The notes: generated by a model from the sequence alone, not told the origin. A stretch of 58,501 nt of DNA from Candidatus Poribacteria bacterium (GCA_022822085.1 JAJECK010000147.1:1-58501), one strand, 5' to 3'. Shown: positions 35,865 to 41,304, numbered from the stretch's first letter. Numbers and translations are program-made.

Positions 35865-36890
35865 ATGCCGAGACGTAGTCCGTATACAAAAGTCGTAAAA
35901 ACGAACCAAATTCGGGCAGAACATGTTTCCGGAATGGGTGATGTAGTCTTTAAAGGCTTTCAATGTTTGAACAGTGAATGTCTTGAATTTATTTTCATTC
36001 GTAAGGTTGAAATTGGCAATGATTTTGAGATCGTCTGTCCGAGTTGTGAGGCAGTTATATTATCAGGCGATGAAACCCAGTTCTATGAGTACAAACTGGA
36101 AGATAAGAGAGACAGTTCCATAATTGAGGAAGGGACATTTACAATTCTGCATGATGATTATATAGAGGAAGCACAAGAGTATAAATTTTGCATTATCTGC
36201 AATACGATAAAACCGCTTTATTTGTTTGACCGACATAAGTCACGAAAGTCAGGTCGTCAAGGCGAGTGTAAACTGTGCAAAAGAGTTTATAACTCAATTA
36301 AGAATAAGACACGGTTGGCAGATCAGCACCGTGAAGCGGCACAAAAGCGTAGGATGTATTTGGGACTCTCTGGAAGTGTTAAAATCGAGAGTGCGGAAAT
36401 TTACAACCGTTTTGGATATTGTTGTTTTAAGTGCAAAAAAGATCTACGTAATGTTGACGTTAAAGAACGTCCCCTTGATCATACACTTCCTGCGGTCTTT
36501 TTATGGCCTTTGACAACTGAAAATGCAACGCTATTATGCAGAGAACATAACAGTGAAAAATCGGATAAATGGCCCTCAGCGTATTACTCAGATGACGAAT
36601 TAAAAGAACTTGCTGTTCTGACTGGTGTTCAATACGAAACACTGTCTGGACTACCACACTATAATCCTGAGGCAATTGAACGCCTTAAGTCTCCGGAACA
36701 AGTAGATGACCTTTTGACAAAATATGCAGCGTATCTACAAGAGATAATAAAGTTACGAAACCGCATTTTGCAGTACGAAAATATTGATTTCTTTAAGTAT
36801 TCTACAACTATTTCGTCCGCGTGGGTACGCCAAGCAGATCAAGAGTACCAACAAGTAATTCATCAAGAACAGGATGTTAATACAGGATAA
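35865..36890 (+). CDS. HNH restriction endonuclease-like protein
   Basis: Of 341 residues, cysteines are arranged in an N-terminal zinc ribbon (C34, C39, C58, C61), a second one (C109, C112, C135, C138) and an HNH core: C187 and C190, then DHTLPAVFLWPL (D205, H206), ENATLLCREHN (C225, H228, N229). The C-terminus is helical. The layout resembles type II HNH restriction enzymes, and the gene converges with, and overlaps by 14 bases, a two-domain DNA methyltransferase, making a restriction-modification pair. The recognition sequence cannot be told. Confidence 0.78.
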   Translation: MPRRSPYTKVVKTNQIRAEHVSGMGDVVFKGFQCLNSECLEFIFIRKVEIGNDFEIVCPSCEAVILSGDETQFYEYKLEDKRDSSIIEEGTFTILHDDYIEEAQEYKFCIICNTIKPLYLFDRHKSRKSGRQGECKLCKRVYNSIKNKTRLADQHREAAQKRRMYLGLSGSVKIESAEIYNRFGYCCFKCKKDLRNVDVKERPLDHTLPAVFLWPLTTENATLLCREHNSEKSDKWPSAYYSDDELKELAVLTGVQYETLSGLPHYNPEAIERLKSPEQVDDLLTKYAAYLQEIIKLRNRILQYENIDFFKYSTTISSAWVRQADQEYQQVIHQEQDVNTG

Positions 36891-39558
36891 GGTATTGATG
36901 AGAAGTAACTGTTCCTTTGTCCCGAATACCGTGAGATTCACAATGAGTTACGCTTTCATCGAAGATATCTACTGAGCGAAACCACCGTCTACCAAGTTTT
37001 TGCAAATGCTCTGCCATATCACACTTAGCACTTTTCCCTAAGTGCAAAACAACTACACCATCAGATTTAAGACGTTCTTTCGCTTGACGGAAAACTGGAA
37101 TATACACATCAAAACTCCGTTTCTGTTTTTCGTCAACAAAAACAGATGGACACTTTTTGAAATCCTGACCAGACCAACCCGCAAACCATAACCGTAGCCA
37201 GTTTGCGGAATAAAAACGAGTACTATCAAAGAATGGTGGTGATGTAATAATAGCATCGAGTTGATCTACTTCTCTGGGCCACCAAGTTACGGCATCTTGT
37301 AAAAAGACCTTCCCAGGTTTAAAATTTTCAGGTAAGACTTCAGTCAGACTCCGAAATACTTTCGCGCGTAGTTGACAGATCAACGAACGATATTCATAGA
37401 CACCAGTAGGTTTGTAAGGAGTGAGAGGGTGTGACCGTCGGCTGAGCGCATACGGACGATTACCATGCAAAATATGAAGCAGTGAGGAAAAGACAAACTG
37501 CTCATCAGGTTTATCGGGATGATGCAACTGAAAGTAACGACGTGCTAATAGAATTTCGCTTAGGGTTTGTTGTTCATAATATTCCGAGATTTTCCCATTG
37601 AATCCCAAATGATTTGCTTCAGTAAGCTCTTCGTTTGAAATTGAATGGAAGTCAATAAATTCTGCTAATGTTTCAATGACTGCGGTGCAACCATCTCTTG
37701 TGGGTTGTTGAACTTTTGCGTTAGCAATAACGAATGCAGCAGGACTTATCTCAAAACCGTAGCCTTGTTTGCCATCAAGGGCTGCTTCAAATGGAATTGT
37801 ACCAACACCGGCAAAGGGGTCTAAAGTTCTTCCACTTTCAGGAACAAATGTTCTTACCAAATGGTGTGCAATTGCTGGTTTGAGTTTACCGGGATAAGAA
37901 CATAAAGAGTGTCGAGAATGTCCCCAATTCCTTTTCGTAAAAGGTGTTTTCTGATGAGGTAGATTTCGTTTGAAGATATTCCATTCAGTATGCCAGCGTG
38001 GACAAGGTTGTCTAATGGTTCCCTTTTTCTGCTGCAAATTCTGTTTAAAAACAAGTAATGATTGTTCTAGTAACATACCGCCTCTGGATTTACGTTTTCG
38101 GAGTAAAACTTGATCAATTTGCTCTAAGCCAAGGTCGTGCAAACACGATGCCAACAACTTATCCACTGGAACATGAACCCCTGCATAGCAAGAATCACCG
38201 ATATCAATTGCAATTGTAGCCTCTGGCGTTAGATGAGGGACAATGGCATCAAATATACTTGCTATCTCACTAAAATAACAAGCAACCATCTGTGGTATAC
38301 GGGAATCATACGCGTGTTTTTCCAGTTTTGAAACAATTTTTTGGACATCAGGATGTGAGTGAGTAGGTGTTTTTGAGACAGTAACATCGTTAATGCCTGC
38401 AGTTAATGAAGCAGCCCGAAATCTCGTCAAGTCTTTCTTTTCTCTTAAACATTTTAAAAACCATAGTTCTATCTTTGTATTTCGAAAATAGTTAGTTCCG
38501 TTTACATAAGGTGGACTTGTAATTACGGTATCAATTCCGATAGGTGTTATGTCGCGCAAAGAATGGGCGTTTTCACAAATTAGCAGAGGTTCAGTTTTTA
38601 AGCCATCAACATCATTCTGGATATCCTGAATTATCTGATTGATATTATGACAGATGCCTTCAATGAACGGAACTGTTTGACGATCAAGCTCACTTTCCGA
38701 CTTGTACCTCAAATCACCTGAGCGTTTCATCCGGGAGGAAGGGACAAGAGTAGATAAGACAGAAACTGTGATAAGGTCCGCTAAAACTGGGTTTTCAAGA
38801 GTAACTTCATCAATCCAAGTGCGTGCTCGTAAAACCGTGTCATAAACTGATGCATCAAAGAACATACTATCCCCAAAAGTCTTAGTATAGGTTTGGTGTA
38901 GAACATCGTTTCTTGAATACTTATCAAGTTCTTTTGCTGTTTCTTTTGCTGCCTGAAGGCCTTGAACTAACGCATTACGTTGAGACGATTTTAATCTTCT
39001 AACCTCTATTTTCGTTAAACATAAAAACTGTAGTAATGGGTTGATTTCACAGAAATACGTTGTCTTGCCAAGTTGTGCTGCGGCGAAAGCGGTCGTTCCT
39101 GTACCAGCGAATGGATCTAAAATCCTCTGTGCATTCGGGGTGAATTTTTCTATTATTGATTCCACAAATTGCGGGGAATATCCTTCTAAATATTTGTACC
39201 ATCGAGCATAAGGTTCTTTACTACCCGCTTTAAAAGTTACTGTGAGTGGATCAAACAAATCTGTTTGATCCTCCATTCCCGGTAATTTAAGCTGTACCGC
39301 AGACTCATGAATGACATTCACAGATTGTCTCAATTGACGAAGACAATATGTATTTAAAGGTAAGTCCGCTGCTTCAGCATTATCTACAAGTGTTTGATAG
39401 TTAGCTCCCAATAGCTGGCGAAGTTCAGCACTCGAAAGTCCCTTAACCCTCTCATATATTTCATCTGTCTTCTTACCAAATGCTAAAGTCACAGATTTCT
39501 TTTGAGAAGTTTCCCCAGGGTGCTCTGGAAAGTAAACTGATTTGTATTTTTGTTTCAT
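36877..39558 (-). CDS. Fused double DNA methyltransferase of restriction-modification system
   Basis: The 893-residue protein holds two amino-methyltransferase domains. The first has SAM motif DPFAGTGTT (148-156) and catalytic TSPPY (347-351); the second has DPFAGVGT (580-587) and TSPPF (772-776). The TSPPY type is typical of N4-cytosine (or N6-adenine) methyltransferases. Two fused domains suggest each strand of an asymmetric site is methylated separately, as in type IIS systems. It converges on the HNH nuclease gene with a 14-base 3' overlap. No controller gene is seen. The N-terminal 110 residues may help DNA recognition. Confidence 0.9.
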   Translation of the reverse strand: MKQKYKSVYFPEHPGETSQKKSVTLAFGKKTDEIYERVKGLSSAELRQLLGANYQTLVDNAEAADLPLNTYCLRQLRQSVNVIHESAVQLKLPGMEDQTDLFDPLTVTFKAGSKEPYARWYKYLEGYSPQFVESIIEKFTPNAQRILDPFAGTGTTAFAAAQLGKTTYFCEINPLLQFLCLTKIEVRRLKSSQRNALVQGLQAAKETAKELDKYSRNDVLHQTYTKTFGDSMFFDASVYDTVLRARTWIDEVTLENPVLADLITVSVLSTLVPSSRMKRSGDLRYKSESELDRQTVPFIEGICHNINQIIQDIQNDVDGLKTEPLLICENAHSLRDITPIGIDTVITSPPYVNGTNYFRNTKIELWFLKCLREKKDLTRFRAASLTAGINDVTVSKTPTHSHPDVQKIVSKLEKHAYDSRIPQMVACYFSEIASIFDAIVPHLTPEATIAIDIGDSCYAGVHVPVDKLLASCLHDLGLEQIDQVLLRKRKSRGGMLLEQSLLVFKQNLQQKKGTIRQPCPRWHTEWNIFKRNLPHQKTPFTKRNWGHSRHSLCSYPGKLKPAIAHHLVRTFVPESGRTLDPFAGVGTIPFEAALDGKQGYGFEISPAAFVIANAKVQQPTRDGCTAVIETLAEFIDFHSISNEELTEANHLGFNGKISEYYEQQTLSEILLARRYFQLHHPDKPDEQFVFSSLLHILHGNRPYALSRRSHPLTPYKPTGVYEYRSLICQLRAKVFRSLTEVLPENFKPGKVFLQDAVTWWPREVDQLDAIITSPPFFDSTRFYSANWLRLWFAGWSGQDFKKCPSVFVDEKQKRSFDVYIPVFRQAKERLKSDGVVVLHLGKSAKCDMAEHLQKLGRRWFRSVDIFDESVTHCESHGIRDKGTVTSHQYLILY

Positions 39559-39700
39559 TTATTATTTCCGAATTCTGAATTATAGGTTTATCATTATTAA
39601 TATACATGTATATACTATCATATTATGGTAGTTATGTCAAAATATTTTTGTTGATATTCTTTTTCGGAATAAGTCGTTTTGGACTTGAGAAATTTTCAAT

Positions 39701-39832
39701 TTACCCGGACTCCATATTCTCTGTGAGAAACTTGGCAAAGATGTTCGTTCCTCTGTAGTTGTCCTTGTAGCACGCCTCTGCGAGATACAGTGGCATGTAT
39801 CCTGTTGTATAGTGGTGATGGGATCCATACAT
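39701..39832 (-). pseudogene. Probable transposase C-terminal remnant
   Basis: The minus strand translates to 43 residues with GYMPLYLAEACYKDN and NIFAKFLTENMESG, resembling the helical end of IS1595-type transposases. It is too short for a gene and abuts TTGACGCTTAT, the same end sequence seen in elements at 53984 and 54139. The family call is tentative. Confidence 0.4.
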
Positions 39833-39986
39833 ATAAGCGTCAATTTAAGGATTTTTGATTTTGAGTGTCCCTCTTCAATCCTGTCCGGACGGGACTAAAG
39901 ACATGGACATGAGGCTGCTATAAAACATTAACACAATAGAAAAAACTGTTTGAAAATATTGCAAACTAAATAACCCTGGTTTTATG
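39833..39986. other. Intergenic repeat debris
   Basis: No gene is seen. GCGTCAATTTAAGG (about 39837-39850) matches the end sequence of the nested element near 53.98 kb. TCTTCAATCCTGTCCGGACG (39872-39891) is a diverged solo copy of the triplicate repeat at 45207. Confidence 0.6.
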
Positions 39987-40015
39987 TTGACACACCTCTT
40001 AACTGCATGTATAAT
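39987..40015 (+). promoter_or_regulatory. Perfect sigma70 promoter before MFS gene
   Basis: TTGACA (39987-39992), a 17-base spacer and TATAAT (40010-40015) match the consensus at every position. Transcription would begin near 40022, about 56 bases before ATG 40078. The ribosome binding site is weak. Confidence 0.85.
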
Positions 40016-40077
40016 AGTTGATACTGCACAATTTTCGGTTATCCTAAATGTGCAGAATCTACCTATAGAACCTACGA

Positions 40078-41304
40078 ATGCAAAAATCCAGACTCCTTCT
40101 TTTGTTCCTAACCCTATTTTTTGTGATGCTTGGGTTTGGCATTATCATTCCAAACCTCGCTTATTACGCAAAAGATATCGGGGCAACTCCCACCCAAATT
40201 GCATTATTATTGTCTATCTACTCTGGCATGCAACTGATATTTGCCCCAATCTGGGGTAGGTTATCAGACATACACGGCAGGAAACCGGCAATTATGTTCG
40301 GATTGCTCGGTAACGCTGTTGCTTTAGCTGCTTTTGGATTAGCAAGAGATTACGTCTGGCTTTTCGTTGCACGCAGTGCAGCAGGCATTGCTTCGGCTGC
40401 TGTGTTGCCCAGCGTCATGGCGTATGTCGCAGATGTCACAACATCCGAGGAACGCGGTAAAGGCATGGGATTAATGGGCGCAGCAATGGGGCTCGGCTTC
40501 ATTCTCGGACCAGCAATAGGCGGAATCATGGGACGGAATGATCTCCCCTTCTTTGTTGCTGGGGGATTATCGTTCTTGACATTCGTCTTTGTTCTTGCAA
40601 CATTGCCTGAATCGCTACACCAAAGGGGTAAGGAAACAGAGCATGACTGGGTATCTCCCCGGGCATTATTTCAACAGGCTACACTCAAATCACCGCTTAT
40701 TCCTCTCTTCCTCGTAGCTTTTTTCTCAACCTTCAGTTTTGCTGGATTAGAGGCGACTTTTCCACTCTACATTAAAGAAGGATGGAATTATGAGCAAAGA
40801 GAGATGGGGTGGATGTTTATGGTTATGGGGGTGATTGTTGTTCCTTTACAAGGCGGATTACTCGGTAGGTTAATTAACTGGATAGGAGAACGTCGGATAA
40901 TCTTAGTCGGTCTATTGCTAAACATACTCGGCATGACACTATTTCTCTACGCATTCAATTTTGTAACGCTAACTATCTATCTTACAATTACCGGTATAGG
41001 TAATCAATTGATCCGGCCAACAAATACATCGTGGATTTCAAAACAGACACAGATTGGTCAGGGGGCGGCTATCGGTATTATGGATGCCTTTTTAAGTTTT
41101 GGACGTATTTTGGGGCCACTCCTCGGCGGTTGGTTATATGATAAATCTATACATCCTTCAGTTGTCAAATCGAGTTTTAATTGGTTTTTCAACGGGTGGT
41201 TATACGGTAATAATGCCTATTCTTATGCCGTTTTGGCGATTATTTTGGTCCTAGCGACTATCTGTTTATATATTCCGTTGCTGCGAGTAGAAAGAAAAAC
41301 CTAA
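40078..41304 (+). CDS. Major facilitator superfamily transporter, drug-efflux-like
   Basis: The 408-residue protein has about twelve membrane helices and the MFS motif A between helices 2 and 3, GRLSDIHGRKPAIM, with LMGAAMGLGFILGPAIGG in helix 5, the motif C typical of drug/H+ antiporters such as TetA. Substrate unknown. It sits under a perfect consensus promoter and its stop is six bases from the stop of the convergent TPR/VCBS gene. The ATG at 40078 has no strong ribosome binding site. Confidence 0.92.
   Translation: MQKSRLLLLFLTLFFVMLGFGIIIPNLAYYAKDIGATPTQIALLLSIYSGMQLIFAPIWGRLSDIHGRKPAIMFGLLGNAVALAAFGLARDYVWLFVARSAAGIASAAVLPSVMAYVADVTTSEERGKGMGLMGAAMGLGFILGPAIGGIMGRNDLPFFVAGGLSFLTFVFVLATLPESLHQRGKETEHDWVSPRALFQQATLKSPLIPLFLVAFFSTFSFAGLEATFPLYIKEGWNYEQREMGWMFMVMGVIVVPLQGGLLGRLINWIGERRIILVGLLLNILGMTLFLYAFNFVTLTIYLTITGIGNQLIRPTNTSWISKQTQIGQGAAIGIMDAFLSFGRILGPLLGGWLYDKSIHPSVVKSSFNWFFNGWLYGNNAYSYAVLAIILVLATICLYIPLLRVERKT

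What the first reader, a model, noticed from the sequence alone, without database searches (positions are those of the whole stretch)
35865..39558. Restriction-modification locus with tail-to-tail overlapping genes
An HNH nuclease with two extra zinc ribbons and a fused methyltransferase with two catalytic motifs (TSPPY, TSPPF) converge and overlap by 14 bases. Fused twin methylase domains suggest an asymmetric target with each strand methylated separately. Convergent overlap could let each transcript restrain the other, as no controller gene is present.
Basis: partly seen in the sequence, partly recalled or inferred. Interest (0 to 1): 0.6.

Follow-up and report, generated by a model that had tools for sequence, protein, structure and literature searches.

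The report
Restriction-modification cassette with built-in methyltransferase operator
A sponge-symbiont bacterium carries a mobile two-gene DNA-defence cassette, a zinc-bearing HNH nuclease facing a double-headed DNA methyltransferase, and the methyltransferase promoter holds a conserved palindrome through which the enzyme probably represses its own gene, in place of a separate controller gene.

Summary
A 341-aa HNH-type nuclease (35865-36890, +) and an 893-aa methyltransferase with two catalytic domains (36877-39558, -) converge and overlap by 14 bp. They form a Type II restriction-modification cassette. Sixteen distinct loci in Candidatus Poribacteria and Latescibacterota carry it, tail-to-tail wherever both genes are held; both genes are under strong purifying selection, and empty-site comparisons show a clean insertion of about 4.08 kb containing these two genes only. 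A distant relative on a Psychrobacter plasmid has separate M1 and M2 genes, the same convergent nuclease, and a C-protein gene.

The regulation idea needs changing. Overlap length varies (4, 14 or 32 bp; a 7-bp gap in Psychrobacter). The conserved element is a 17-bp palindrome, CTAYCATAATATGRTAG, between the -35 and -10 of the methyltransferase promoter. It is present in 14/14 testable loci; in 60 genomes it occurs only in the 7 carrying this promoter, once each. The methyltransferase also has a ~100-aa N-terminal domain, absent from Psychrobacter M1, whose predicted fold (low confidence) most resembles a single-chain Arc-type ribbon-helix-helix repressor. Best reading: the methyltransferase represses its own gene. 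The operator is shown by conservation; its binder is inferred.

The parts
35865..36890 (+). HNH-type zinc-rich nuclease, predicted Type II restriction endonuclease, 341 aa
   Evidence: adjacent to the methyltransferase in every locus where the far side of the gene was held
35964..36047 (+). first zinc ribbon (C34, C39, C58, C61)
   Evidence: ligands invariant in 11 homologues
36189..36278 (+). second zinc ribbon (C109, C112, C135, C138)
   Evidence: ligands invariant in 11 homologues; C135 and C138 also kept in the Psychrobacter homologue
36423..36551 (+). HNH core with its own zinc pairs: C187/C190, D205-H206, N220, C225/H228, N229
   Evidence: weak matches to Cas9 HNH
36877..36890 (.). 14-bp tail-to-tail overlap of the two genes
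   Evidence: length 4, 14 or 32 bp in homologues and a 7-bp gap in Psychrobacter
36877..39558 (-). two-domain DNA methyltransferase (N4-cytosine/N6-adenine type), 893 aa
   Evidence: Pfam N6_N4_Mtase, two stretches, E 1e-21; PADLOC MTase_II E 2.9e-66
39250..39558 (-). N-terminal extension (residues 1-103), predicted beta-beta-alpha x4, putative ribbon-helix-helix-like DNA-binding domain
   Evidence: found only in this methyltransferase; absent from Psychrobacter M1; model and fold match
38029..39246 (-). methyltransferase domain 1: DPFAGTGTT at 39091-39117, TSPPY at 38506-38520
   Evidence: 38% identical to Psychrobacter M1
36880..37995 (-). methyltransferase domain 2: DPFAGVGTI at 37795-37821, TSPPF at 37231-37245
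   Evidence: 51% identical to Psychrobacter M2
39615..39631 (-). 17-bp palindromic operator CTACCATAATATGATAG (family consensus CTAYCATAATATGRTAG)
   Evidence: 14/14 distinct loci, mean 1.80 bits per column against 0.31 and 0.42 in flanks; specific to genomes with the cassette
39612..39640 (-). methyltransferase promoter: -35 TTGACA (39635-39640), 17-bp spacer, -10 TAGTAT (39612-39617); the operator fills most of the spacer and overlaps the -10
   Evidence: 10 of 12 consensus match; conserved

Best explanation
This is a two-gene Type II restriction-modification cassette. The two-domain methyltransferase protects host DNA, probably one domain per strand of an asymmetric site (methylating N4 of cytosine or N6 of adenine). 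The convergent HNH nuclease cuts unprotected DNA. Expression is balanced without a C gene. The methyltransferase promoter carries a dedicated palindromic operator between -35 and -10, and the methyltransferase most likely binds it through its N-terminal domain (predicted ribbon-helix-helix-like), switching off its own gene once enough enzyme has accumulated. On entering a new cell the operator would be free, so methylation would run ahead of restriction; later, repression would cap methylation so that incoming phage DNA is not protected. Shown: gene pair, conservation, cassette borders, operator and its specificity. Inferred: the binder, the sign of regulation, the DNA target and the cleavage activity.
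For: Pair conserved and convergent. Catalytic and zinc residues invariant. Purifying selection on both genes. Clean ~4.08-kb insertion between the superoxide dismutase gene and its usual neighbour, with no room for another regulator gene. Operator in 14/14 loci of two phyla inside unconserved flanks. It occurs once in each of the 7 of 60 genomes that carry this promoter and nowhere else, with zero reversed-pattern control hits, and as a single exact site in each of two Latescibacterota genomes. It overlaps a good sigma-70 promoter. The N-terminal domain is found only in this enzyme. The Psychrobacter relative lacks that domain but has a C gene (PADLOC Control_protein E 4.1e-23) preceded by GACTCATAGTC, a C-box-like sequence. 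N-terminal domain predicted as two strands plus four helices; top PDB fold match is the permuted single-chain Arc repressor 1u9p. Methyltransferase autorepression through an N-terminal helix-turn-helix domain at an operator overlapping the promoter is documented for other Type II systems (PMC3874152).
Against: No sequence profile identifies the N-terminal domain as DNA-binding. The fold match is weak (E 0.6, probability 0.75, TM 0.47/0.50) and rests on a shallow alignment (mean pLDDT 65). The contrast with Psychrobacter is a single case. One MAG (L038/G026) has an intact nuclease gene with an internally deleted methyltransferase, which an active restriction enzyme should not allow unless this is an assembly error.
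Confidence: 0.6

Rival explanations
1. One reading: expression is balanced by convergent transcription, each transcript acting as antisense to the other across the overlapping 3' ends.
For: Convergent orientation kept in all loci where both genes are held and in Psychrobacter; no convincing terminator between the genes; antisense control is known in the EcoRI and Eco29kI systems, although from internal reverse promoters (PMC3874152).
Against: Overlap length is 4, 14 or 32 bp, and a 7-bp gap in Psychrobacter. A conserved operator exists elsewhere, so control does not have to come from the overlap.
Confidence: 0.12
2. Methylation-sensitive promoter: the operator arms contain the enzyme's own target site and methylation of that site, not binding by a separate domain, tunes the promoter.
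For: Regulation by methylation of target sites in a methyltransferase promoter is known (PMC3874152). The arms are inverted copies, as two copies of an asymmetric site could be.
Against: The whole 17-bp element is conserved, not just a 4-7 bp target, together with the TRTAC beside it. It does not explain the N-terminal domain.
Confidence: 0.15
3. A host-encoded or nuclease-encoded protein binds the operator.
For: The binder has not been identified directly. The nuclease has two zinc ribbons beyond its HNH core.
Against: The operator follows the cassette across two phyla and is absent from related genomes without it, so a host factor is unlikely. The distant Psychrobacter system also encodes a nuclease, but no such operator was found on its plasmid.
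Confidence: 0.12
4. Not restriction-modification but a homing-type HNH element or a decayed defence island with a solitary methylase.
For: L038/G026 has an intact nuclease gene beside a deleted methyltransferase; the cassette is mobile.
Against: Strict pairing, purifying selection on both genes, joint decay of both genes in G007, and a Psychrobacter relative with a C protein.
Confidence: 0.05

Closest known systems
Psychrobacter sp. ANT_P39B plasmid pA39BP3 (NZ_MN657077.1) M1/M2/HNH/C locus, annotated but not found described in the paper library
   Same: Both methyltransferase domains (38% and 51% identity), HNH nuclease core (35% over 161 aa), convergent order
   Different: M1 and M2 are separate genes, no N-terminal extension, an unrelated longer N-terminus in the nuclease, and a separate C-protein gene with a C-box-like sequence
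Type II systems whose methyltransferase autorepresses through an N-terminal helix-turn-helix domain (reviewed in PMC3874152)
   Same: Operator overlapping the methyltransferase promoter, N-terminal extension on the enzyme, no C gene
   Different: Predicted N-terminal fold is ribbon-helix-helix-like rather than helix-turn-helix; enzyme has two methyltransferase domains; nuclease gene converges rather than diverging as in Ecl18kI
HNH Type IIS enzymes of the MnlI and HpyAV kind (PMC4081073, PMC2816704)
   Same: HNH-class nuclease with a methyltransferase, asymmetric target likely
   Different: Membership as Type IIS and the recognition site cannot be tested here; no direct sequence comparison with them was made
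Pseudanabaena plasmid NZ_AP017561.1 M1-M2-HNH operon
   Same: Two related methyltransferases beside an HNH nuclease
   Different: All genes in one direction; nuclease unrelated in sequence

Membership tests
Type II restriction-modification system | Endonuclease and methyltransferase genes adjacent and inherited together | tested here: met
Type II restriction-modification system | No ATP-dependent translocase or specificity subunit in the cassette | tested here: met
   Two-gene cassette with no other gene
Type II restriction-modification system | Methylation and cleavage of the same specific site | not testable with these tools
   No methylome or biochemistry available
Type IIS (asymmetric site, two methyltransferase activities) | Two methyltransferase domains with intact motifs | tested here: met
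   separate M1 and M2 in Psychrobacter
Type IIS (asymmetric site, two methyltransferase activities) | Asymmetric recognition site | not testable with these tools
   Target unknown
HNH (beta-beta-alpha-metal) nuclease superfamily | Conserved D-H ... N core framed by a zinc CxxC/CxxC pair | tested here: met
   D205, H206, N229, C187, C190 and C225 invariant including Psychrobacter; H228 is Cys there and N220 is not kept
HNH (beta-beta-alpha-metal) nuclease superfamily | Significant match to a curated HNH profile or structure | tested here: inconclusive
   No Pfam HNH hit; PADLOC Cas9 E 4e-4, PDB Cas9 HNH E 0.03
C-protein-controlled restriction-modification | C gene in the system | tested here: not met
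   None in the cassette; present in the Psychrobacter relative
Autorepressing methyltransferase | Operator overlapping the methyltransferase promoter | tested here: met
   a conserved operator-like palindrome; that it is bound by a protein is inferred
Autorepressing methyltransferase | Extra N-terminal domain on the methyltransferase | tested here: met
   absent in Psychrobacter M1
Autorepressing methyltransferase | That domain is helix-turn-helix and binds the operator | tested here: inconclusive
   Model is ribbon-helix-helix-like, not clearly helix-turn-helix; binding not testable
Ribbon-helix-helix superfamily | Match to any ribbon-helix-helix family profile in Pfam | tested here: not met
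Ribbon-helix-helix superfamily | Two-strand ribbon with four helices, as in a ribbon-helix-helix dimer | tested here: inconclusive
   Model gives two strands plus four helices; top PDB match 1u9p but E 0.6

The most novel reading that the evidence does not exclude
The methyltransferase carries a natural single-chain ribbon-helix-helix repressor with both strands first and then four helices, like the engineered permuted Arc. This domain replaces the C protein, so one polypeptide is protector of both DNA strands and regulator of its own gene.
Probability: 0.35. Interest if true: 0.6.

Novelty: new variant of a known kind. Interest (0 to 1): 0.45.

Why it matters
It offers a testable answer to how a restriction system without a controller gene balances cutting and protection: a dedicated operator that travels with the cassette between phyla. 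The Psychrobacter relative, with split methyltransferases and a C protein, gives a natural comparison between two control strategies for related enzymes. The nuclease belongs to a family that the curated profile libraries used here do not recognise.

Tried and rejected
Viral contigs and phage records: no relatives. Pfam, PHROGs and PDB sequence searches with the N-terminal domain: nothing meaningful. Full-length AlphaFold model: mean pLDDT 50, too poor except for the N-terminal domain; its PDB fold search mainly recovers methyltransferases. The viral fold library gave nothing for the N-terminal domain. A first operator pattern with a 3-base centre was mis-specified and found nothing; the correct centre is one base. 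The Pseudanabaena HNH protein was tested as a nuclease homologue and rejected. Target-site avoidance could not be tested because whole genomes were not available for scripts.

Full report
What is there. The window is contig C139 of a Candidatus Poribacteria genome (the named relatives are Poribacteria and Latescibacterota). ORF 35865-36890 (+, 341 aa) and ORF 36877-39558 (-, 893 aa) converge and share 14 bp. The nuclease matches no curated family, only weakly Cas9-type HNH domains, but all twelve zinc-ligand positions and the D205-H206...N229 core are invariant among 11 homologues, and D205, H206 and N229 extend to the Psychrobacter homologue. The methyltransferase has two N6/N4-type domains, homologous to each other, with invariant motifs TSPPY and TSPPF.

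Distribution. The nuclease occurs in 12 of 85 genomes of the phylum and in three Latescibacterota genomes. Including G003, whose methyltransferase contig ends where the nuclease should begin, there are 16 distinct loci. In all loci where both genes are held they are convergent. Two loci are damaged. G007 has frameshifts in both genes. G026/L038 has an in-frame deletion of about methyltransferase residues 70-851 with the nuclease gene intact, and its contig ends 60 bp beyond the methyltransferase start; this could be real or an assembly fault. Both genes evolve under strong purifying selection. The nuclease is 72-79% identical between the two phyla while most synonymous sites have changed, consistent with horizontal transfer followed by selection; no tree was built.

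Cassette borders. In several genomes the pair lies directly downstream of a superoxide dismutase gene. Related genomes without it have the dismutase directly followed by the gene that otherwise lies beyond the methyltransferase. G031 against L042: homology stops 83 bp after the dismutase and resumes at +108 (empty) or +4163 (occupied). G006 against G010: positions 63|64 correspond to 58 and 4154. So about 4.08 kb, containing just the two genes and short non-coding stretches, is gained or lost as a unit. No controller gene is part of it. In the window the left neighbour is the same, but the right flank is a transporter gene that in related genomes sits away from the dismutase.

A distant relative. 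A 6.5-kb Psychrobacter plasmid carries M1 (38% identity to domain 1), M2 (51% to domain 2), a convergent HNH nuclease (35% over 161 aa) and, upstream of the nuclease, a small helix-turn-helix gene that matches the control-protein family (E 4.1e-23). A C-box-like GACTCATAGTC precedes that gene. M1 and M2 as separate genes support the idea that each domain of the fused protein is a complete enzyme. There the two convergent genes do not overlap; they lie 7 bp apart.

The overlap. Its length is 4, 14 or 32 bp among the homologues and absent in Psychrobacter. Orientation is conserved; overlap length is not. This argues against the overlap being the regulatory device, although transcriptional interference is not excluded.

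The operator. Upstream of every methyltransferase start with sequence available (14 of 14 distinct loci) lies TTGACA-N3-CTAYCATAATATGRTAG-NNTRTAC, with a few departures: -35 TTGATT in decayed G007 and TTGAAA in L097, single-base changes at the palindrome centre in L043 and L100, and a two-base variant palindrome in L044. Column information averages 1.80 bits in the palindrome against 0.31 upstream and 0.42 downstream. The palindrome fills most of the 17-bp spacer of a sigma-70 promoter and overlaps the -10 hexamer (window 39612-39640, 10 of 12 consensus). In 60 genomes it occurs seven times, once in each genome that carries the methyltransferase with its promoter, and never elsewhere, with no reversed-pattern control hits. 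Two Latescibacterota genomes each have a single exact site; the third, L044, carries the two-base variant. The site is therefore specific to this cassette.

Who binds it. The cassette encodes two proteins only. Residues 1-103 of the methyltransferase form a conserved extra domain found in no other protein of the genomes and plasmids searched and missing from Psychrobacter M1. A ribbon-helix-helix character was proposed from the sequence (note written) before the fold search. The model (two strands, four helices, pLDDT about 75 over most of residues 1-82) has the permuted single-chain Arc repressor, 1u9p, as its top PDB match, but with E 0.6 this is suggestive only, and profile searches give no support. 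Autorepression by a methyltransferase with an N-terminal DNA-binding domain at an operator overlapping its promoter is an established mode of Type II control (PMC3874152), there with helix-turn-helix domains. In the library searched no restriction methyltransferase with a ribbon-helix-helix domain was found; that is absence from one library, not proof of novelty.

Verdict. The locus looks like a genuine Type II restriction-modification cassette with a two-domain methyltransferase: a known kind. The new points are the cassette-specific operator, the likely built-in regulator, and a nuclease family that curated profiles miss. Shown: genes, residues, selection, cassette borders, operator and its specificity. 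Inferred: restriction activity, target, methylated base, binder and direction of regulation.

Noticed in passing
L038 8998-9396 (G026:C349): Methyltransferase reduced to a 109-codon in-frame remnant (about residues 70-851 deleted) beside an intact nuclease gene; the contig ends 60 bp beyond the methyltransferase start.
   Followed up: partly
L039 3938-7637 (G007:C276): Both genes of the pair are frameshifted together and the methyltransferase -35 has become TTGATT: joint decay of a whole cassette.
   Followed up: partly
L013 (G003:C44) and L084 (G003:C54): One contig ends 212 bp after the dismutase and another ends at the methyltransferase 3' end, so the nuclease appears to fall in an assembly gap.
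   Followed up: partly
window 39650-41304: The right flank of the cassette is an MFS transporter gene that, with the following TPR/FG-GAP gene, forms a conserved pair elsewhere in related genomes: a rearrangement breakpoint next to the cassette.
   Followed up: partly
L054 1500-1545: Psychrobacter M1 is preceded by its own inverted repeat ACTCATAA-TGTTT-TTATGAGT, possibly the C-protein site for the methyltransferase genes.
   Followed up: no
L112 2158-6083: Pseudanabaena plasmid operon M1-M2-HNH with related methyltransferases but an unrelated nuclease.
   Followed up: partly
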